Shown piece after piece: positions 8,040-62,272 of a stretch of 64,000 nucleotides of DNA. The notes under the pieces are model-generated. The model saw nothing but the letters and a program-made list of their open reading frames with translations, made no database searches and was not told where the DNA came from. Source of the DNA: Candidatus Electrothrix aestuarii (GTDB lineage: Bacteria; Desulfobacterota; Desulfobulbia; Desulfobulbales; Desulfobulbaceae); contig CP159373.1 of assembly GCA_032595685.2 (NCBI GenBank), forward strand, positions 4,193,821-4,257,820, written 5' to 3'. The stretch's first letter is position 1. The number at the start of each line of letters is the position of its first letter. A program made the translations under genes and the position numbers.

Positions 8040-9375
8040 GAACAAAACGCCCTACGGGCGGATTAAAACGGAAGCAATTGCGGTATCCACTTAACCTGCC
8101 GACCCGAAGAGTTTCTCTTGTTGCATTCTTGTTTACTCTTGCTTTCCACAAAAGGTCCGTCTCTGCTCAGATCAAAGATATCTCCATAGTCAGGATGCCA
8201 AATCCGCCATAAAAACATTTTTTCTTTACAGTTTGGACATGTTAACGGATCTTTCCCGAAACTCTGTACTAGACGCTCTCTCCAGCTCAATGACCTTGAA
8301 TCACTTTTCATGAATTCAAAAGTCTTCTGGATAAAACGTTTACAGTCCATCAAAATCTCTATCGCGATTGTTTTTGTACGTCGAGAATATAACCCATAAT
8401 GGCGACCATCTTGAATCCCTTTAGCGGGATATGGTCAATTAATCGTTGTATGAACTCTTTGGCTGGAATCGCTTCGGTAACTTTAACTTCTGTTTTATGA
8501 TCAATATACCAAAATGTTACTTCCTCACCATCGTAATTCGTTATCTTGTGCTCTGCCAATGCTGGACGAGCCATATAGCGACCAATATATCGAGCTGCAT
8601 GTCTTGCTGATGTCATCTTGCTTTTACCATTTACATAAAAACCATTACGTTGGCTTTTAAACAGGTAATCTATGAATCTTACATTTTCTTTTGTTTGCGG
8701 CAAGCTAGCCTTTATTTCAGTCAGCAAATAATATTGCCATTTTTTTCTAAGCAGACCATATGGCAAAAATGGAATATCAACCCACTGATTGGAAGATGTT
8801 AATCCTCCTTCTGTCATTAACATATGGACATGCGGATTAAACTTAAGATCTCTTCCAAACGTATGGACAACTAATAGAATTCCCGGAACAGCATCAACTC
8901 CTTTACTTTGAAGTACTTCCACAGCCGCTTTTGAAGCACAATCCATCATAATCTTGATCAGCATACGATCACTAAAAATTATCTTTCGGAGTTCTTGTGG
9001 AATGGTAAACACTAAATGTCGATGAACTACGTCGAATATACTTTTCACTGTCTTTTCAACCCATTCATCGACGTATCGCTTACCGCAAGACGTACAGAAT
9101 CGACACTTACAGGTGAACCCTACTCTCTTTTTTCAAAACAATTCGGACAAATATACTCGACATAGCCATTGGTAGACTCTCCACAGTTGATCATTTTTTC
9201 TACATTTTCAACGATTGACTCCCAGTGAAGGCTTGAGTACCTGCTTGCCAATTCAACGCAGACTACATACCAAAAATCACGAAAGATTAATTTTATCAGC
9301 TTATTTTTCATTAAGCTAATACTCTATTCGCAATTACAACATGTTGAAAGGAAAATTTTATAATTTCCTATACAA
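8040..9375 (-). mobile_element. IS91-like (HUH) insertion sequence, copy 1, 1336 bp
   Basis: Bounds come from alignment with copy 2 (11131-12466): the copies are almost identical inside and unrelated outside. There are no terminal inverted repeats, as expected of rolling-circle HUH elements. The end downstream of the transposase (8040) has GAAC at the junction followed four bases later by a hairpin, CGCCC TAC GGGCG (8048-8060). The other end has a GGAAA...TTTCC inverted repeat (9350-9369). On the right the flank also begins GAAC (9376-9379). Inserted in a PIN toxin gene. Confidence 0.88.
8063..9311 (-). pseudogene. IS91-family transposase, copy 1 (frameshifted)
   Basis: Rolling-circle transposase with an N-terminal zinc-binding domain (9311-9120: CGESTNGYVEYICPNC) and a catalytic domain (9048 onward) that shows the HUH motif as NPHVHMLMTEGG and the tyrosine motif as YIGRYMARP. 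Two breaks are seen. A -1 shift at an A6G run (about 9126-9132) separates the zinc domain from the HUH domain and is shared with copy 2. A missing G near 8401-8405 (GGCGACC against GGCGGACC in copy 2) shifts the frame after KGFKMV. The C-terminal part (CPNCKEKMFLWRIW) is intact here. Confidence 0.85.
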
Positions 9376-11130: not shown

Positions 11131-12466
11131 GAACAAAACGCCCTACGGGCGGATTAAAACGGAAGCAATTGCGGTATCCACTTAACCTGCCGACCCGAAG
11201 AGTTTCTCTTGTTGCATTCTTGTTTACTCTTGCTTTCCACAAAAGATCCGTCTCTGCTCAGATCAAAGATATCTCCATAGTCAGGATGCCAAATCCGCCA
11301 TAAAAACATTTTTCTTTACAGTTTGGACATGTTAACGGATCTTTCCCGAAACTCTGTACTAGACGCTCTCTCCAGCTCAATGACCTTGAATCACTTTTCA
11401 TGAATTCAAAAGTCTTCTGGATAAAACGTTTACAGTCCATCAAAATCTCTATCGCGATTGTTTTTGTACGTCGAGAATATAACCCATAATGGCGGACCAT
11501 CTTGAATCCCTTTAGCGGGATATGGTCAATTAATCGTTGTATGAACTCTTTGGCTGGAATCGCTTCGGTAACTTTAACTTCTGTTTTATGATCAATATAC
11601 CAAAATGTTACTTCCTCACCATCGTAATTCGTTATCTTGTGCTCTGCCAATGCTGGACGAGCCATATAGCGACCAATATATCGAGCTGCATGTCTTGCTG
11701 ATGTCATCTTGCTTTTACCATTTACATAAAAACCATTACGTTGGCTTTTAAACAGGTAATCTATGAATCTTACATTTTCTTTTGTTTGCGGCAAGCTAGC
11801 CTTTATTTCAGTCAGCAAATAATATTGCCATTTTTTTCTAAGCAGACCATATGGCAAAAATGGAATATCAACCCACTGATTGGAAGATGTTAATCCTCCT
11901 TCTGTCATTAACATATGGACATGCGGATTAAACTTAAGATCTCTTCCAAACGTATGGACAACTAATAGAATTCCCGGAACAGCATCAACTCCTTTACTTT
12001 GAAGTACTTCCACAGCCGCTTTTGAAGCACAATCCATCATAATCTTGATCAGCATACGATCACTAAAAATTATCTTTCGGAGTTCTTGTGGAATGGTAAA
12101 CACTAAATGTCGATGAACTACGTCGAATATACTTTTCACTGTCTTTTCAACCCATTCATCGACGTATCGCTTACCGCAAGACGTACAGAATCGACACTTA
12201 CAGGTGAACCCTACTCTCTTTTTTCAAAACAATTCGGACAAATATACTCGACATAGCCATTGGTAGACTCTCCACAGTTGATCATTTTTTCTACATTTTC
12301 AACGATTGACTCCCAGTGAAGGCTTGAGTACCTGCTTGCCAATTCAACGCAGACTACATACCAAAAATCACGAAAGATTAATTTTATCAGCTTATTTTTC
12401 ATTAAGCTAATACTCTATTCGCAATTACAACATGTTGAAAGGAAAATTTTATAATTTCCTATACAA
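11131..12466 (-). mobile_element. IS91-like (HUH) insertion sequence, copy 2, 1336 bp
   Basis: Same element and orientation as copy 1 (8040-9375), differing by only a few bases: one SNP near the 3' end (GATCCGT against GGTCCGT), one base fewer in a T run (11309-11313) and one base more at 11494-11495. GAAC marks the left junction (11131-11134) and the CGCCC TAC GGGCG hairpin follows. The right flank has no GAAC. It splits a BamE-like gene. Confidence 0.88.
11154..12402 (-). pseudogene. IS91-family transposase, copy 2 (frameshifted)
   Basis: Zinc-binding domain at 12402-12211, HUH catalytic domain from 12139 (HVHMLMTEGG; YIGRYMARP). The region after KGFKMV is intact here (VRHYGLYSRRTK), unlike copy 1. 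The frame is lost later at a T5 run (11309-11313) where copy 1 has T6, so the conserved C-terminus CPNCKEKMFLW becomes CPNCKEKCFYG and ends early. The A6G -1 shift after the zinc domain is shared with copy 1. Confidence 0.85.
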
Positions 12467-43991: not shown

Positions 43992-45730
43992 CCTAAATTG
44001 AGCGATTCTTGATATAAAATAATCCTTTTCCATGTTTCAACCATATGTTATTATTCATGTAAGTAAAGAACTACAGCTTAATTGATTTGCAACCCTCCGG
44101 GTGAAGTACCATGAAGAAGAAAAAAAACACGACCTATCGAAAAAGTGACCTGAAAATTAATTATATTGACATAACTGACGACTGTTTGACCAGTCGGTCA
44201 GGTCTGTCTCTTTTTATAGCGTACCTGCATGGTATTTCATTATTCCCTATTATTGAGAGTTTGTTCGGCGATCTGAGAAAAAGCAAAAAAGGTGCATCGG
44301 CGGTTGAGATATTCAAGCAGATATTCTGTTTCATGATGGACGGAACCAGTCGACATCTGGTGTACTTTGACGATCTTAAGGCAGATAAGGGCTATGCCGC
44401 CTGTATAGAGACATCAGAGGATGACATGGCCTCCTCGCATACAATCAAGCGTTTTTTCGGCAATTTTTCTTTTGTTAAAGTGTTTGTTTTTCGACGTCTG
44501 CTGCAGAAACTGTTCATTTGGCGATTGAATATAACCAAGCCAGCCGTTGTTGAACTCGGCATTGATACAATGGTTATGGAAAACGATGACGCAGAGTGTC
44601 GACATGGAGTAAAACCGACCTATAAAAAAAAGAAAGGATTCCAGCCGTTACAGATGAACTGGGGAAGATTTTTTGTAGATGCGGTTTTTCGCGGTGGTGA
44701 TAAGCACTCGAATCACGGTGACACTGTCCAAAAAATGATATTGCATATTGTGAATCGCATCAGAAAGGAATATCGACATGATGTCCCGATTGTTATCCGA
44801 ATGGACAGTGGTTTTTTCGACCAGAAGATTTTTGAATTTTGTGAGCAACTTGGTGTTGGTTATATCTGTGGTGGGAAGATGTATAAAGATATAAAAGAAT
44901 TTGCAAGTGAGACAACCCGTTGGAGGCGTTTTGCCGCACCCGGTAAGAAAGATATTTGGGAGTATGCGGAATTCGGCACTAAAAGGGGTAATTGGAAGCA
45001 ATTTCGACGTGCTATATACTGTCGCCTGTGCAACCACGGGTCTCAGCTTCGGCTTCCAGGAACTGGTCCAGACACCGTGATCATTACAAATCTTGGGCGT
45101 GGCGGAACTATTGACGAACTTCTTGAAAAGGCGGGAGTTATGTCAGAATATGTAAGTGCCAACGCTATTGTTGCAGGGTATCATGTACGCGGTAGCGACG
45201 AGTTGGTTAACCGAGGTTTCAAGGATTTTGGCCATGAACAACTGCCGTTCACTCGATTCACTCCAAACGCTGCGTGGTATTACATGCTACTGGTCGGCTT
45301 TTTTCTTTTTGAATCATTCAAAGAGGATGCAGCTTCTCCCGTAGTTTCAATAACAGCCTATGCATCAACAGTGCGCCGTCAACTGATAGATGTAGCGGGT
45401 AAAATTGTCAGGCACAGCGGTCAGGTTGTATTAAAAGTGGCCCGGTGTGCTTTTGAAGGGCTTCAATTAGCCGAAATGTTAAAAAGGTGTATTGAGCCCC
45501 CTGTGTTACAACACTAGGTGAGCATCTCCGGCAATTCTCAATTTGAATTCAGACAGGATAAGTGCGCCCAATTTTCATGAAAACTGCGGAAATTGGCCCC
45601 AAAACGTAACGGATCTGAAGAAAAGCTATATTCAGAGGTGTTTTTGTTTTCCCCTGAGAACCAATTTTTAAAAAATTGAGCTTTTCTTACCGGAATTGCT
45701 TTACCCAGACCATGAATCGCTCAATTTAGG
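43992..45730 (+). mobile_element. IS1380-like insertion sequence inside the intron
   Basis: 1739 bp with perfect 17-bp terminal inverted repeats CCTAAATTGAGCGATTC (43992-44008) and GAATCGCTCAATTTAGG (45714-45730), flanked by a 5-bp target duplication TAACA (43987-43991 and 45731-45735). Everything between the ends belongs to the element. Confidence 0.92.
44111..45517 (+). CDS. IS1380-like DDE transposase
   Basis: 468 residues, intact. DDE residues are likely in LGIDTMVMENDD (Asp), VIRMDSGFFDQKIFEF (Asp) and the C-terminal catalytic block near FLFESFKED. The KKKKGFQPLQMNWG, then GGDKHSNHG and RMDSGFF order resembles IS1380 transposases. Family assignment is good but not certain against other IS4-superfamily groups. 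The frame is unbroken, the target duplication perfect and the repeats identical, so the insertion is recent. Confidence 0.8.
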   Translation: MKKKKNTTYRKSDLKINYIDITDDCLTSRSGLSLFIAYLHGISLFPIIESLFGDLRKSKKGASAVEIFKQIFCFMMDGTSRHLVYFDDLKADKGYAACIETSEDDMASSHTIKRFFGNFSFVKVFVFRRLLQKLFIWRLNITKPAVVELGIDTMVMENDDAECRHGVKPTYKKKKGFQPLQMNWGRFFVDAVFRGGDKHSNHGDTVQKMILHIVNRIRKEYRHDVPIVIRMDSGFFDQKIFEFCEQLGVGYICGGKMYKDIKEFASETTRWRRFAAPGKKDIWEYAEFGTKRGNWKQFRRAIYCRLCNHGSQLRLPGTGPDTVIITNLGRGGTIDELLEKAGVMSEYVSANAIVAGYHVRGSDELVNRGFKDFGHEQLPFTRFTPNAAWYYMLLVGFFLFESFKEDAASPVVSITAYASTVRRQLIDVAGKIVRHSGQVVLKVARCAFEGLQLAEMLKRCIEPPVLQH

Positions 45731-46082
45731 TAACATAAAGTTTTAAGCGTAAGACAGCGAGCAGACAGGCCGTAAGCCATAGGTTGAAGGGATTGAGCCC
45801 CGTAATTGTCGCGTAGGGAAGGACGACACTGTAATAAAAGTGGAAGTCAACACAAGCACCGCCGTTATTTGGCAAGGCGATGTTCGCTTCCTCGGGGTCA
45901 GAGACCACGGCATGTCTGACATTGTGATCACACGGCAACCTGGGAGGCCCTGCGTTTCTCTCGAAGCAAGGGAGTATGCCGGACAACTGAAGAGGGAGGA
46001 AGGCAAATGAGACGCAGGGAGTCGGACAGCCTCATAGTACCTGTGAAGGCGGGTAATTCTGCCGGAGGAAAGGAGGCTGCAC

Positions 46083-47440: not shown

Positions 47441-47454
47441 ATTGACTATGTGAG

Positions 47455-47488
47455 GAGCCGTGTGCGTAAATAGCGCAAGCACGGTTCT
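47455..47488 (+). ncRNA. Group II intron domain V
   Basis: GAGCCGTGTGCG...CGCAAGCACGGTTCT folds into the 34-nt domain V hairpin: GAGCCGTG pairs with CACGGTTC, with an internal bulge and a GTAAATAG apical region. This is the catalytic core of the ribozyme. It lies 15 bp past the RT stop, the normal position. Confidence 0.85.
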
Positions 47489-47720
47489 GAGAGGGGCCGG
47501 GGCCAACAGGACAGCACATTCAAGTGATCTCACGATGCGTAGGAGCTGCGTGCGGCGGGGCGTAGTCTGAGACCTTTTACTGGGCTGCTTGGAGAAACCG
47601 GTCTACTCGACTAACAGTTACCTAGGTCCGATTGAGTACAACGAAATCAGACAATTCACGATATGAGCTGTCCGTTTTCGTTGCACGCAAACAGACCTAC
47701 TTGAACTACAAGGAACAAAT

Positions 47721-53315: not shown

Positions 53316-53654
53316 ATGTCTGGAATAATCAAGTTGTTTTCAGCTTTGCTATTCGTTTGTCTCATTGTCTCTACAACCTATTCCTCATCTGTCGCTTCAA
53401 CGACCAATGAAAATACTCATAAGCCTACTCCCCAAAGGGTAACTTTTGCAGATTTCAAAGATATTCACAAAGGAATGTCTTACAATGAATTGATCCAGGT
53501 AGTTGGTCAGCCAACAAGATATTCGGGAGTTGGGACTGCACATGTTGCTTATGACTTTTCCGATGGGCGTACGGTGTGGATAGCTTTCCAGGAAAAGAAA
53601 ACCGTGTCGGCATTTATTGCTGTTAAGGGAAAAAAGACTGAAATCTTATTTTGA
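53316..53654 (+). CDS. Exported BamE/SmpA-like small protein
   Basis: 112 residues from ATG 53316 with a signal peptide (IIKLFSALLFVCLIVSTTYS). The mature part has the BamE-type helix-turn IHKGMSYNELIQVVGQPTRY, followed by strands (VAYDFSDGRTVWIAF). It resembles in fold the split BamE-like gene at 10711-12508. Periplasmic or envelope role, otherwise unknown. Confidence 0.6.
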   Translation: MSGIIKLFSALLFVCLIVSTTYSSSVASTTNENTHKPTPQRVTFADFKDIHKGMSYNELIQVVGQPTRYSGVGTAHVAYDFSDGRTVWIAFQEKKTVSAFIAVKGKKTEILF

Positions 53655-54107
53655 AAAATCAATAAGTTATTTCTTTATTCAAATCGTTCCCCCACCCTAC
53701 CCCTCCACAGGAGTTGGTTCCAGTCTTTTGGGTTTTTTCATGATTTTTCTTCTTGTCCTGCTGCATAGTTCCAGAATACTGTTGGATACCCCCTTCCCCT
53801 TTTGAACCAATAGGAAAAAATGAGCTATCCTTGATTCATACAACCTTATCTACAGAACCCAAATATATGGGGGAGATGACACCCATAATTCGACCTTTTC
53901 AGGCAGCCTTGCCTTGGTTGCCCAATTGAATGCCTCAGGAACCATGAACGACTGCGCAGCCGGGGCTAGTCCATGCGGACTGTCCTCTCGCCAACACTTA
54001 GCAGGGTGACCATCAAAAAATGGGCTCAAAAAGAACAGACAGAAGAAATATAAAATGAAAGAGAAGAGAGTGAAGCCCGGCATCAACCACCGGGCCCAAA
54101 AGAATTC
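53655..54107. other. Gene-poor stretch with a hairpin next to the selenoprotein gene
   Basis: No convincing gene; a minus-strand frame at 53850-54086 lacks a ribosome site and family signal. A GCCCGG/CCGGGC stem (54075-54095) lies 12 bases beyond the selW-like stop and may end its transcript, although no T tract follows. Confidence 0.4.
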
Positions 54108-54323
54108 TTAGAGAATCAGTCCAACAATCTCCCCTTCATCGGGAAAACGACCTGTTTCATGCTTGGAGTAGATTTGCTTGCCATCAACACAGACAGTAAA
54201 CACGCCACCAGAGCCCGGAATAAGCTCAACCTCTGCGCCGAATTCCTTCTTTAACTCGTCCTCCAAACTGGAGGCTCTTGGCTTGTAGTTTCACGCCGTG
54301 CAGTATTCAATAGTGACTTTCAT
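54108..54323 (-). CDS. SelW/Rdx-family selenoprotein (UGA = selenocysteine)
   Basis: 71 residues if the in-frame TGA at 54293-54291 is read as selenocysteine: MKVTIEYCTA-U-NYKPRASS, then EVELIPGSGG, FTVCVDGKQIYSKHETGRFP and a TAA stop. The CxxU redox motif (Cys8, Sec11) at the end of the first strand and the GSGGVF turn are those of the thioredoxin-like SelW/Rdx family. A good ribosome site (AAGGAG) precedes the ATG. A 6-bp hairpin starts 16 bases after the TGA. Standard gene finding sees only two fragments here. Likely a thiol redox protein in the cytosol. It precedes, on the other side of a 176-bp gap, the stop of mutY on the same strand. Confidence 0.9.
54260..54293 (-). promoter_or_regulatory. 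Bacterial SECIS element
   Basis: Minus strand: TGA, 16 bases, then CCTCCA-GTT-TGGAGG (54274-54260), a perfect 6-bp stem with a GTT loop. Bacterial SECIS hairpins lie in the coding region just downstream of the UGA with a GU-containing loop that binds SelB, which matches. Confidence 0.75.
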
Positions 54324-54499
54324 ACGTTTCTCCTTGGAAGTAAAAAAACAGGCAGAGCGTGCCCGTCAAAAGAAAAAATAGCCCCTCTCTCATAATGCAT
54401 TGTGGTATGAAAATGGGCTACCTCTCTTATTTTTTACTCAAGGCCGGGAAGATGCGCAAGCGATTTACTCAATCGATGTCAGGGAGAAAAGGAAAGGAT

Positions 54500-55576
54500 T
54501 CAGCGAAGTTTTTCAATCAGCTGACGATGTCCTGAGGGAAAGGCAAAGTGGCTCAGCTCCTTGAGCGTAACCCATTTGTACTGACTCGCCGCATGCAACA
54601 CCGGCTCGGTTACTTGCTGATCTGCCAAAGTGCAGAAGAAGGCATCCAGGGTAACACGATATTTTGTGTAATGGTGGACCGCTGTAGCAAAGGGGCGTAC
54701 CTCGCTTACCTGAAACTCTGTTTCCTCAAGGATCTCACGCACAGCAGCCTGCTCTGAATTCTCTCCCTCCTTGAGTCGTCCACCAGGGAATTCCCACAAA
54801 CCGCCCCAGACATCCTTTTCCATACGCTGCTGAATAAAAAAGCGATCCCCCTGCCGGATAATGCCGCAAGCCATGAAGATATCAATGCGCTGTTCCTTTT
54901 TCCCCGGCACAGGGCGAAGGTCAACGATATCTTTCAGGTAAGCCTGACAGTGCTGCTGAAGCGGGCAAGTGGTACAGGATGGTTTCTTGGGTGTGCAGTT
55001 CAGGGCACCGAATTCCATCAGGGCCTGATTGAAATTTCTGGCATCATCCTGATGAAGCAGTTCGCTACAGCGTTGCAGCAATATTTTGCGGGTTGCAGCC
55101 TGTTTAACCGGCTGATCAATATCGTCAAGCCGACAGAGAACCCGCTCCACATTGGCATCAATGAGAGGAACAGCCTGATTAAAGGCGATGGAGAGAATGG
55201 CAGCAGCCGTATACGGCCCAATGCCGGGCAGGGCCAGCAGCTCAGCCTCTGTCTTTGGGAGTTCTCCCCCGTATTCCTGGACCAAGATTTCAGCGGTTTT
55301 ACGAATATTACGCACCCGGCTATAATAACCCAGCCCTTCCCAGACCTTGATCACCTCCTGCTCTGAAGCCGCTGCCAGGCTTGGGATATCAGGAAACAGA
55401 CTTATCCAATTTTGAAAATAGCTGACAACCCGTTCCATCTGGGTTTGTTGGCCCATGATTTCGGAGATCCAGACATGGTATGGACGGTATTCCTTGCGCC
55501 AAGGCAGGGGGCGTTGATTTGCCCTAAACCATGCAAGAATCCCTTGAGTGATGTCGGTGGCAGGTGCGTTGGTCAT
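54500..55576 (-). CDS. mutY: A/G-specific adenine DNA glycosylase MutY
   Basis: 358 residues from ATG 55576, which overlaps the upstream stop (ATGA); the longer frame to 55633 is rejected. Removes adenine opposite 8-oxoguanine. Catalytic Glu is in VWISEIMGQQTQMERV; the helix-hairpin-helix LPGIGPYTAAAIL leads to the catalytic Asp in VPLIDANVERVL; the [4Fe-4S] loop is CTPKKPSCTTCPLQQHC. The C-terminal Nudix-like domain that reads 8-oxoG is present (LWEFPGGRLKEGE, then REILEET), with an apparently intact Nudix box. Confidence 0.95.
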   Translation of the reverse strand: MTNAPATDITQGILAWFRANQRPLPWRKEYRPYHVWISEIMGQQTQMERVVSYFQNWISLFPDIPSLAAASEQEVIKVWEGLGYYSRVRNIRKTAEILVQEYGGELPKTEAELLALPGIGPYTAAAILSIAFNQAVPLIDANVERVLCRLDDIDQPVKQAATRKILLQRCSELLHQDDARNFNQALMEFGALNCTPKKPSCTTCPLQQHCQAYLKDIVDLRPVPGKKEQRIDIFMACGIIRQGDRFFIQQRMEKDVWGGLWEFPGGRLKEGENSEQAAVREILEETEFQVSEVRPFATAVHHYTKYRVTLDAFFCTLADQQVTEPVLHAASQYKWVTLKELSHFAFPSGHRQLIEKLR

Positions 55577-56004
55577 ATTGTTTTTTCTGAAGAAAATATC
55601 AGCTCCTTTTTTCCACCCTTGCGACGAATCCAATTCAAGGAACGCTGAATTTTGAGATTGGCTATGATTCTCTCATTTAAACGATGCTTTCCTGGAAAAT
55701 CCATCAGAGAAAAACCGATTACCATCGTGAGTATCCCCTGGCCGGGAAGAACAAGCATGATGATCCCGGCGAGCAAAAGGAACAAGCCCATGCTGTTACG
55801 GAAGAGAAAGGTGATAACCGCAAGTACCGGATGGCGTTGATACCGCGCATCCACCTCCTGACGGTGGCGAATAAAATAATCCGACCGCATGCGCAGGACC
55901 AACCAGGGGAGGATTATCAGGCTGCCGAAAAAAGTCAGCACAGAGATAAGGCCCAGGATTTGCAGCATCTCTGTCAGGGGAAGAGAGGTCAGCTCGGCGA
56001 TCAT
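55573..56004 (-). CDS. PGPGW-type small membrane protein
   Basis: 143 residues with about three hydrophobic segments (about 15-38, 62-80 and 80-100). The core LLLAGIIMLVLPGQGILTMV, then GFSLMDFPGKHRL, resembles the PGPGW family of membrane proteins of unknown function. It is coupled by 4-bp overlaps to prmA upstream (56001-56004) and mutY downstream (55573-55576). Confidence 0.7.
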   Translation of the reverse strand: MIAELTSLPLTEMLQILGLISVLTFFGSLIILPWLVLRMRSDYFIRHRQEVDARYQRHPVLAVITFLFRNSMGLFLLLAGIIMLVLPGQGILTMVIGFSLMDFPGKHRLNERIIANLKIQRSLNWIRRKGGKKELIFSSEKTI

Positions 56005-61923: not shown

Positions 61924-62272
61924 CCACCGAAGGGGAGATATCAGATGCGATCTGTTTGAGTGCCTTGTTAGTCGATGATAGCATCCGGCACTGCCGAGGT
62001 GATTACTCATTGAGGAGGAGCTTTGTGAATGAGAGAATACCCTTCCCGTGGATGTCCATAACTTCACTCTGGTAGATAAAAAGTAGGTAACTCGGCGATC
62101 TCTCTCAGAGAGATCCGTAACTTTCCGACACCGTCCACGACGGATGTGGCTTTATGCAACTTTCCCTTGCCTTTCAAAGTTTTTTCCCTTTATAATACAA
62201 ACTGTTATTTATTCCATACCGAGCGTATCGCCCTAGCCGAGATACCCTGAAACCACAAAACAGGATTCTTTC
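61924..62272. other. Intergenic region with inverted repeats
   Basis: No gene. Contains GATCTCTC / GAGAGATC (62099-62117) and a CCGTC-CAC-GACGG stem shortly after. These could form hairpins that end the rhombosortase transcript, but no T tract is seen. The CHAD gene promoter must lie here. Confidence 0.45.

What the first reader, a model, noticed from the sequence alone, without database searches (positions are those of the whole stretch)
54108..54323. Hidden SelW/Rdx selenoprotein with an in-frame UGA and SECIS hairpin
Minus strand reads 10 codons ending in Y-C-T-A, then TGA, then 60 codons of clear SelW/Rdx sequence and a normal TAA. A perfect 6-bp hairpin with a GTT loop begins 16 bases after the TGA, where a bacterial SECIS is expected. 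Ordinary gene calling would miss or split it. It implies the organism has selA, selB, selC and selD.
Basis: partly seen in the sequence, partly recalled or inferred. Interest (0 to 1): 0.75.

Follow-up and report, generated by a model that had tools for sequence, protein, structure and literature searches.

The report
SelW selenoprotein gene in cable bacterium
A very small gene that gene finders can easily miss uses a stop codon to insert selenocysteine into a redox protein of the known SelW family; the finding is real but of a well-described kind, here in what appears to be a cable bacterium.

Summary
Window 54323-54108 (minus strand) encodes a 71-residue SelW/Rdx protein with an in-frame TGA (54293-54291) completing a CxxU motif, and a perfect 6-bp hairpin with a GTT loop (54274-54260) starting 16 bases after it. 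Rdx matches at E 7.2e-24 and NF041051 above its cut-off. The genome, inferred to be Candidatus Electrothrix, has selA, selB, selD (itself with an in-frame TGA) and a tRNA-Sec with anticodon UCA. Of 57 genomes searched (own included) 46 match, each with one TGA inside. The hairpin alone is unremarkable (z -1.11), but across 94 distinct homologues it covaries: the pair on two third codon positions is kept in 91 of 94, mean 64.0 by permutation within amino-acid classes (0 of 5000 reach it). Eight Cys-encoding homologues keep 1-4 of the 6 pairs, 43 TGA loci 5-6. This is an ordinary bacterial SelW selenoprotein, a family in print since 2005 (PMC1088965) and shown translated through UGA in Campylobacter (PMC11955535). 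New member, known kind. Three searches of the held library found no paper on selenoproteins of cable bacteria.

The parts
54108..54323 (-). selW-like gene (Rdx family), 71 residues with selenocysteine at residue 11, TAA stop
54291..54293 (-). in-frame TGA read as selenocysteine (C8-x-x-U11)
   Evidence: TGA aligned to residue 11 in 109 of 109 placed loci; Cys in 8 distant homologues
54260..54274 (-). SECIS-type hairpin, 6 bp stem, loop GTT whose first base is the conserved loop G
   Evidence: covariation; not kept in Cys homologues
54330..54335 (-). AAGGAG, probable ribosome-binding site
   Evidence: sequence
54500..55633 (-). mutY (HhH-GPD, NUDIX), upstream neighbour on the same strand, also beside selW in the other 7 loci of the genus (neighbour, not part of the selenoprotein)

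Best explanation
The locus is an intact selW-type selenoprotein gene. Translation starts at the ATG at 54323; at UGA (54293-54291) SelB with Sec-tRNA(Sec) is recruited by the hairpin 54274-54260 just downstream and inserts selenocysteine in place of termination; translation runs on to TAA. The product is a 71-residue thioredoxin-like Rdx protein whose CxxU pair most likely does thiol/selenol redox chemistry. Shown by computation: reading frame, family, conserved TGA, covarying hairpin, Sec machinery in the genome. Inferred from established knowledge: SelB recruitment and Sec insertion. Inferred and less certain: the redox role; substrates are unknown.
For: Family: Rdx E 7.2e-24, NF041051 106.4 bits against cut-off 88 and TIGR02174, solved Rdx/SelW chains matched by sequence. 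TGA conserved: 46 of 46 matches in 57 genomes have one TGA inside, and it aligns to residue 11 in all 109 loci that could be placed, of 110; every Rdx match listed for 192 genomes of the class has a TGA inside (list truncated); 39 of 42 matches in 297 genomes of the phylum have a TGA, the other 3 read TGT, Cys. Purifying selection after the TGA. Hairpin in 94 distinct sequences: each pair kept in 87-93 of 94, loop G in 94 of 94; third-position pair 21-33 kept in 91 of 94 by C-G, T-A, G-C, T-G or A-T, permutation within amino-acid classes mean 64.0, maximum 74, 0 of 5000; sliding the 3' arm by -3 to +6 bases drops pairing of five pairs from 96% to 36-62%. Machinery. TGA otherwise ends genes here: 5 of 7 other inspected ORFs, mutY and prmA among them, so TGA is not simply reassigned.
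Against: The hairpin in this one sequence is not significantly stable. Pair 24-30 gives weaker support (10 of 5000 permutations reach it), because it hardly varies. The permutation does not correct for common descent. 5 of 94 sequences combine Thr and Ala codons that break pair 22-32 (A opposite C). 11 of 57 genomes have no match, 10 of them among the 44 that are at least 90% complete, although all 57 have some selB-like hit and 48 one over the cut-off, so the gene is dispensable. The homologue sets were found with this protein and favour similar sequences. No expression data.
Confidence: 0.97

Rival explanations
1. The TGA is a true stop: a pseudogene of a Cys-containing Rdx protein, or a 10-codon peptide followed by a dead remnant.
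For: The frame does hold a normal stop codon, and the hairpin alone is no better than many shuffles.
Against: A TGA in 46 of 46 matches in 57 genomes with dN/dS 0.02-0.05 downstream, covarying hairpin, Sec machinery present.
Confidence: 0.01
2. TGA is decoded as an ordinary amino acid (Trp or Cys reassignment, or near-cognate readthrough) without selenium.
For: Distant homologues have Cys at the position.
Against: TGA ends 5 of 7 other inspected ORFs in the window; tRNA-Sec with anticodon UCA, selA, selB and selD are present; the SECIS-type stem goes with TGA and not with TGT/TGC.
Confidence: 0.02
3. Conditional use: Sec insertion is inefficient, so that under selenium limitation mostly the 10-residue product is made and the gene acts as a selenium-regulated switch. 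(A refinement of the best explanation, not exclusive of it.)
For: Competition between Sec insertion and termination at bacterial UGA-Sec codons is recalled knowledge; the TGA lies very early (codon 11).
Against: Nothing in the sequence shows regulation; the early position simply reflects the family, whose CxxU is near the N-terminus in all 12 members aligned.
Confidence: 0.1

Closest known systems
Bacterial SelW-like selenoprotein (Pfam PF10262 Rdx; PMC1088965 of 2005; PMC1794560 of 2006)
   Same: Rdx domain, CxxU, UGA with a downstream bacterial SECIS with a loop G. PMC1088965 (passages read) names SelW-like as the most abundant family of its Sargasso Sea set (48 genes). PMC1794560 (passages read) lists SelW-like in its table of loss events, in the rows of the deltaproteobacteria Desulfotalea psychrophila and Geobacter sulfurreducens.
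   Different: The host, inferred to be a cable bacterium (Candidatus Electrothrix), and mutY as the upstream neighbour.
Campylobacter jejuni SelW (CJnc60), NCBIfam NF041051
   Same: Above the NF041051 curated cut-off. C. jejuni SelW is reported translated past UGA by Ribo-seq, termination-site profiling and proteomics (PMC11955535, passages read). PMC4607533 (passages read) says that some SelW genes were completely missed in genome annotation.
   Different: C. jejuni product given as 80 or 81 residues, here 71; another group of bacteria.
Cys-type Rdx proteins (e.g. Sinorhizobium, Azospirillum, Nocardia copies; solved structures 2fa8, 3dex)
   Same: Same family, CxxC at the same place.
   Different: TGC or TGT in place of TGA, and only 1-4 of the 6 stem pairs (8 loci).

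Membership tests
SelW-like / Rdx selenoprotein | Rdx domain over the curated cut-off | tested here: met
   PF10262 84.2 bits, cut-off 22.6; TIGR02174 68.6/34.2 and NF041051 106.4/88
SelW-like / Rdx selenoprotein | CxxU near the N-terminus with in-frame UGA | tested here: met
   Residues 8-11, C-T-A-U; columns 8 and 11 invariant, Sec written as C, in 12 aligned sequences
SelW-like / Rdx selenoprotein | Bacterial SECIS: stem-loop shortly after UGA with G in a small apical loop | tested here: met
   Stem 16 bases after TGA, loop GTT; loop G in 94 of 94, covarying stem. The program bSECISearch was not available; the definition is that quoted in PMC1088965.
SelW-like / Rdx selenoprotein | Host has selA, selB, selC, selD | tested here: met
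   hits over the cut-offs. The tRNA-Sec model also passes its cut-off in 5 of 14 control genomes, so the ARAGORN call and the 75.3 bits carry the weight
SelW-like / Rdx selenoprotein | Selenium incorporated in the product | not testable with these tools
   needs mass spectrometry or selenium-75 labelling
SelW-like / Rdx selenoprotein | Redox activity through CxxU | not testable with these tools
   inferred from the family

The most novel reading that the evidence does not exclude
In cable bacteria SelW has been drawn into defence against oxidative damage in the cells that meet oxygen at the cathodic end of the filament: the gene sits directly downstream of mutY, on the same strand, in all 8 loci of the genus (L001-L008) and beside no recognisable mutY in the 97 other loci compared (84 of them with at least 1300 bases upstream), which hints at joint control of oxidised-base repair and a selenium-based thiol reductase.
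Probability: 0.08. Interest if true: 0.45.

Novelty: new member of a known kind. Interest (0 to 1): 0.25.

Why it matters
It indicates that a genome inferred to be a cable bacterium encodes at least two selenoproteins (SelW and SelD) and the Sec apparatus, and it illustrates how small selenoproteins escape annotation: of the seven public plasmid copies opened, the two with TGA are a Cytobacillus copy with no gene listed at the place (that gene table is known to be incomplete) and a Thermomicrobium copy whose gene is listed only from after the TGA. The SECIS stem also constrains the protein: residues 18 and 21 tend to change together as the RNA stem changes (Ser-Glu 54, Ala-Ala 16, Ser-Gly 10, Thr-Val 2 of 94; Thr-Ala, which breaks the pair, 5).

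Tried and rejected
Stop-codon pseudogene, reassigned code and plain readthrough were considered and rejected (see rivals). Hairpin stability of the single sequence as evidence: tested and found weak. Search for a known RNA in 53600-54500: only one chance-level lncRNA match at E 0.28. Promoter and terminator scans found no more than expected by chance (1 against 0.9, 1 against 1.2). A scan of the window for other frames open through one TGA gave 128 candidates, of which 80 were printed; by eye I saw no second convincing selenoprotein among those printed, and I did not run them against the family libraries. No whole-genome count of selenoproteins was made and no structure was predicted. In the dN/dS rows, L009 is unusable (its match is 6 bases longer, so the ungapped comparison goes out of register), L005 and L008 had saturated dS and L001 had no differences. 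L100 was dropped because its match begins after the TGA. 15 of 109 loci were dropped as repeats of the same 48 bases. Of the 43 TGA loci, 34 are not in the first set and these hold 31 distinct sequences; one of the 43 is the window itself again (L132). The 2026 review PMC13188914 was searched for SelW and host names with no occurrence. Paper listings were seen as listings only, save for the papers quoted by passages.

Full report
What is there. On the minus strand the window reads AAGGAG (54335-54330), an ATG at 54323, ten codons MKVTIEYCTA, TGA at 54293-54291, sixty further sense codons and a TAA ending at 54108. With TGA read as Sec the product is 71 residues and matches nearly the whole Rdx profile (PF10262, E 7.2e-24, positions 1-72 of 74); NF041051 and TIGR02174 are above their cut-offs. 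Solved relatives found by sequence include Selenoprotein W 2npb (E 0.00027) and several bacterial Rdx proteins. The hairpin CCTCCA-GTT-TGGAGG lies at 54274-54260, 16 bases after the TGA.

Whose genome. The window lies in a 5.1 Mb one-contig genome. I therefore infer Candidatus Electrothrix, a cable bacterium.

Conservation of the TGA. Of 57 genomes (own included) 46 have a match, each with exactly one stop inside, a TGA. Of the 110 loci could be placed and all 109 have TGA aligned to residue 11; L100 matches only after it. Several of these loci are the same genomes fetched twice. In the class, 149 of 192 genomes have an Rdx match and every match listed has a TGA inside (the list is truncated, and one row, G188, has two TGA). 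In the phylum 42 of 297 genomes match NF041051 at E 0.001, only 5 over its curated cut-off; 39 of the 42 have a TGA (one of them also a TAG) and three no stop; the three read TGT. After the TGA, dN is 0.05-0.07 against dS of 1.5-3.1 in the four genus comparisons, of eight made, that gave a usable ratio.

The SECIS. Alone, the hairpin is unremarkable: -8.6 kcal/mol, z -1.11, 29 of 200 shuffles as good, and 23.5% of synonymous recodings as good. Across 94 distinct sequences it is clear: the six pairs are kept in 89, 91, 88, 93, 91 and 87 of 94, the first loop base is G in 94 of 94, and 73 of 94 keep all six pairs, 17 five and 4 four. Numbering the T of TGA as 1, pair 21-33 joins two third codon positions. 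Among the 54 sequences with Ala and Glu codons there it is 29 T-A, 24 C-G and 1 T-G; over all sequences 91 of 94 pair, against a mean of 64.0 and a maximum of 74 in 5000 permutations within amino-acid classes. Such synonymous covariation is not expected from selection on the protein; related sequences share some of these changes and the permutation does not correct for descent. Pair 24-30 is mostly C-G (85 of 94) and adds less: 10 of 5000 permutations reach the observed count. Synonymous recoding lowers the mean stability from -10.2 to -6.8 kcal/mol, and 95% of sequences beat their own recoded mean. Sliding the 3' arm cuts pairing from 96% to 36-62%. In a second set, 43 TGA loci keep 5 or 6 pairs and 8 Cys loci keep 1, 2, 2, 2, 2, 3, 3 and 4; 34 of the 43 are not in the first set.

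Machinery. The genome holds selA (E 8.8e-189), selB (E 1.3e-109, 367.2 bits over a cut-off of 242.25), selD (E 1.9e-102) whose own frame contains a TGA in CGUAAKI followed by a predicted stem-loop (no shuffle control), and a tRNA-Sec of 75.3 bits that ARAGORN reads with anticodon UCA. Controls: the selB and selD models ring in all 14 control genomes but pass the cut-off in 2, selA passes in 1, and the tRNA-Sec model passes its cut-off in 5, so the tRNA rests on its high score and on ARAGORN. A second selD-like frame without a TGA also passes the selD cut-off; see the items noticed in passing. TGA is a normal stop in neighbouring ORFs: mutY, the PGPGW gene, prmA, the glmM-like ORF and the transposase, 5 of 7 inspected (mutY, PGPGW, prmA and the transposase were named, the disA-, ybbR- and glmM-like labels are by eye).

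Context. Upstream on the same strand is mutY (54500-55633), 176 bases away. MutY is found next to selW in L001-L008, all eight genomes of the genus, and in L031-L034, which repeat four of them, and in none of the other 97 of 109 loci by tblastn at E 1e-10; 84 of these 97 hold at least 1300 bases upstream, 13 hold less. A G+C-rich palindrome follows the TAA at about 54095-54075 by eye, but the terminator scan did not report it and found no excess of sites.

How it works. UGA recoding by SelB, tRNA-Sec and the hairpin is supported by the sequence and by family precedent: C. jejuni SelW has been seen translated through UGA (PMC11955535, passages read). The redox role of CxxU is an inference from the family; PMC1088965 (passages read) calls the function unclear and says that CxxU suggests a redox function.

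What is new. SelW-like has been a listed bacterial selenoprotein family since 2005 (PMC1088965), is known from deltaproteobacteria (PMC1794560, passages read) and is tabulated as pfam10262 with CxxU in a 2022 review (PMC9312934, passages read). Searches for cable bacteria with selenocysteine (one paper, on a Phyllobacterium, seen as a listing), Electrothrix with selenoprotein (none) and Candidatus Electrothrix with Desulfobulbaceae and selenium (none) found no report in the held library, which lacks most subscription papers. So this is a new member of a known kind.

Noticed in passing
L117 1273-2256 (own genome, G000:C1 about 4096880-4097821): A second selD-like frame without TGA, over the selD cut-off with its neighbours, that begins after the region where the first selD has its CGU motif and seems to hold an internal repeat: a possible truncated SelD paralogue.
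   Followed up: partly
L165 (G028:C195) and L166 (G043:C104): Two relatives have a selB-like gene directly beside a weaker tRNA-Sec (57.2 bits, anticodon UCA); in G043 this is in addition to a full-length selB hit and a 74.5-bit tRNA-Sec on other contigs, so some relatives may hold a second Sec-decoding cassette.
   Followed up: partly
L158 (G305:C32:38647-38850): A SelW homologue of the same phylum with the Sec TGA and also an in-frame TAG; could be an error, decay or pyrrolysine.
   Followed up: no
window about 54010: The close relative G007 (L001) carries about 1.1 kb more here than the window, with a 4-base overlap at the joint, like a recent insertion or loss just downstream of selW.
   Followed up: no
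window 8359-9150 and 11258-12241 (minus): Two near-identical frames, transposase-like by eye, both open upstream only through the same early TGA.
   Followed up: no
window 45693-45907 and 47453-47611 (plus): Two group II intron matches with a frame between them that looks like a reverse transcriptase by eye.
   Followed up: no
window 62083-62160 (minus): c-di-GMP-I riboswitch over its gathering score.
   Followed up: no
L170 and L172 (public plasmid records of Cytobacillus spongiae and Thermomicrobium roseum): TGA-containing SelW genes: in the first no gene is listed at the place, beside selD; in the second the gene is listed only from after the TGA.
   Followed up: partly
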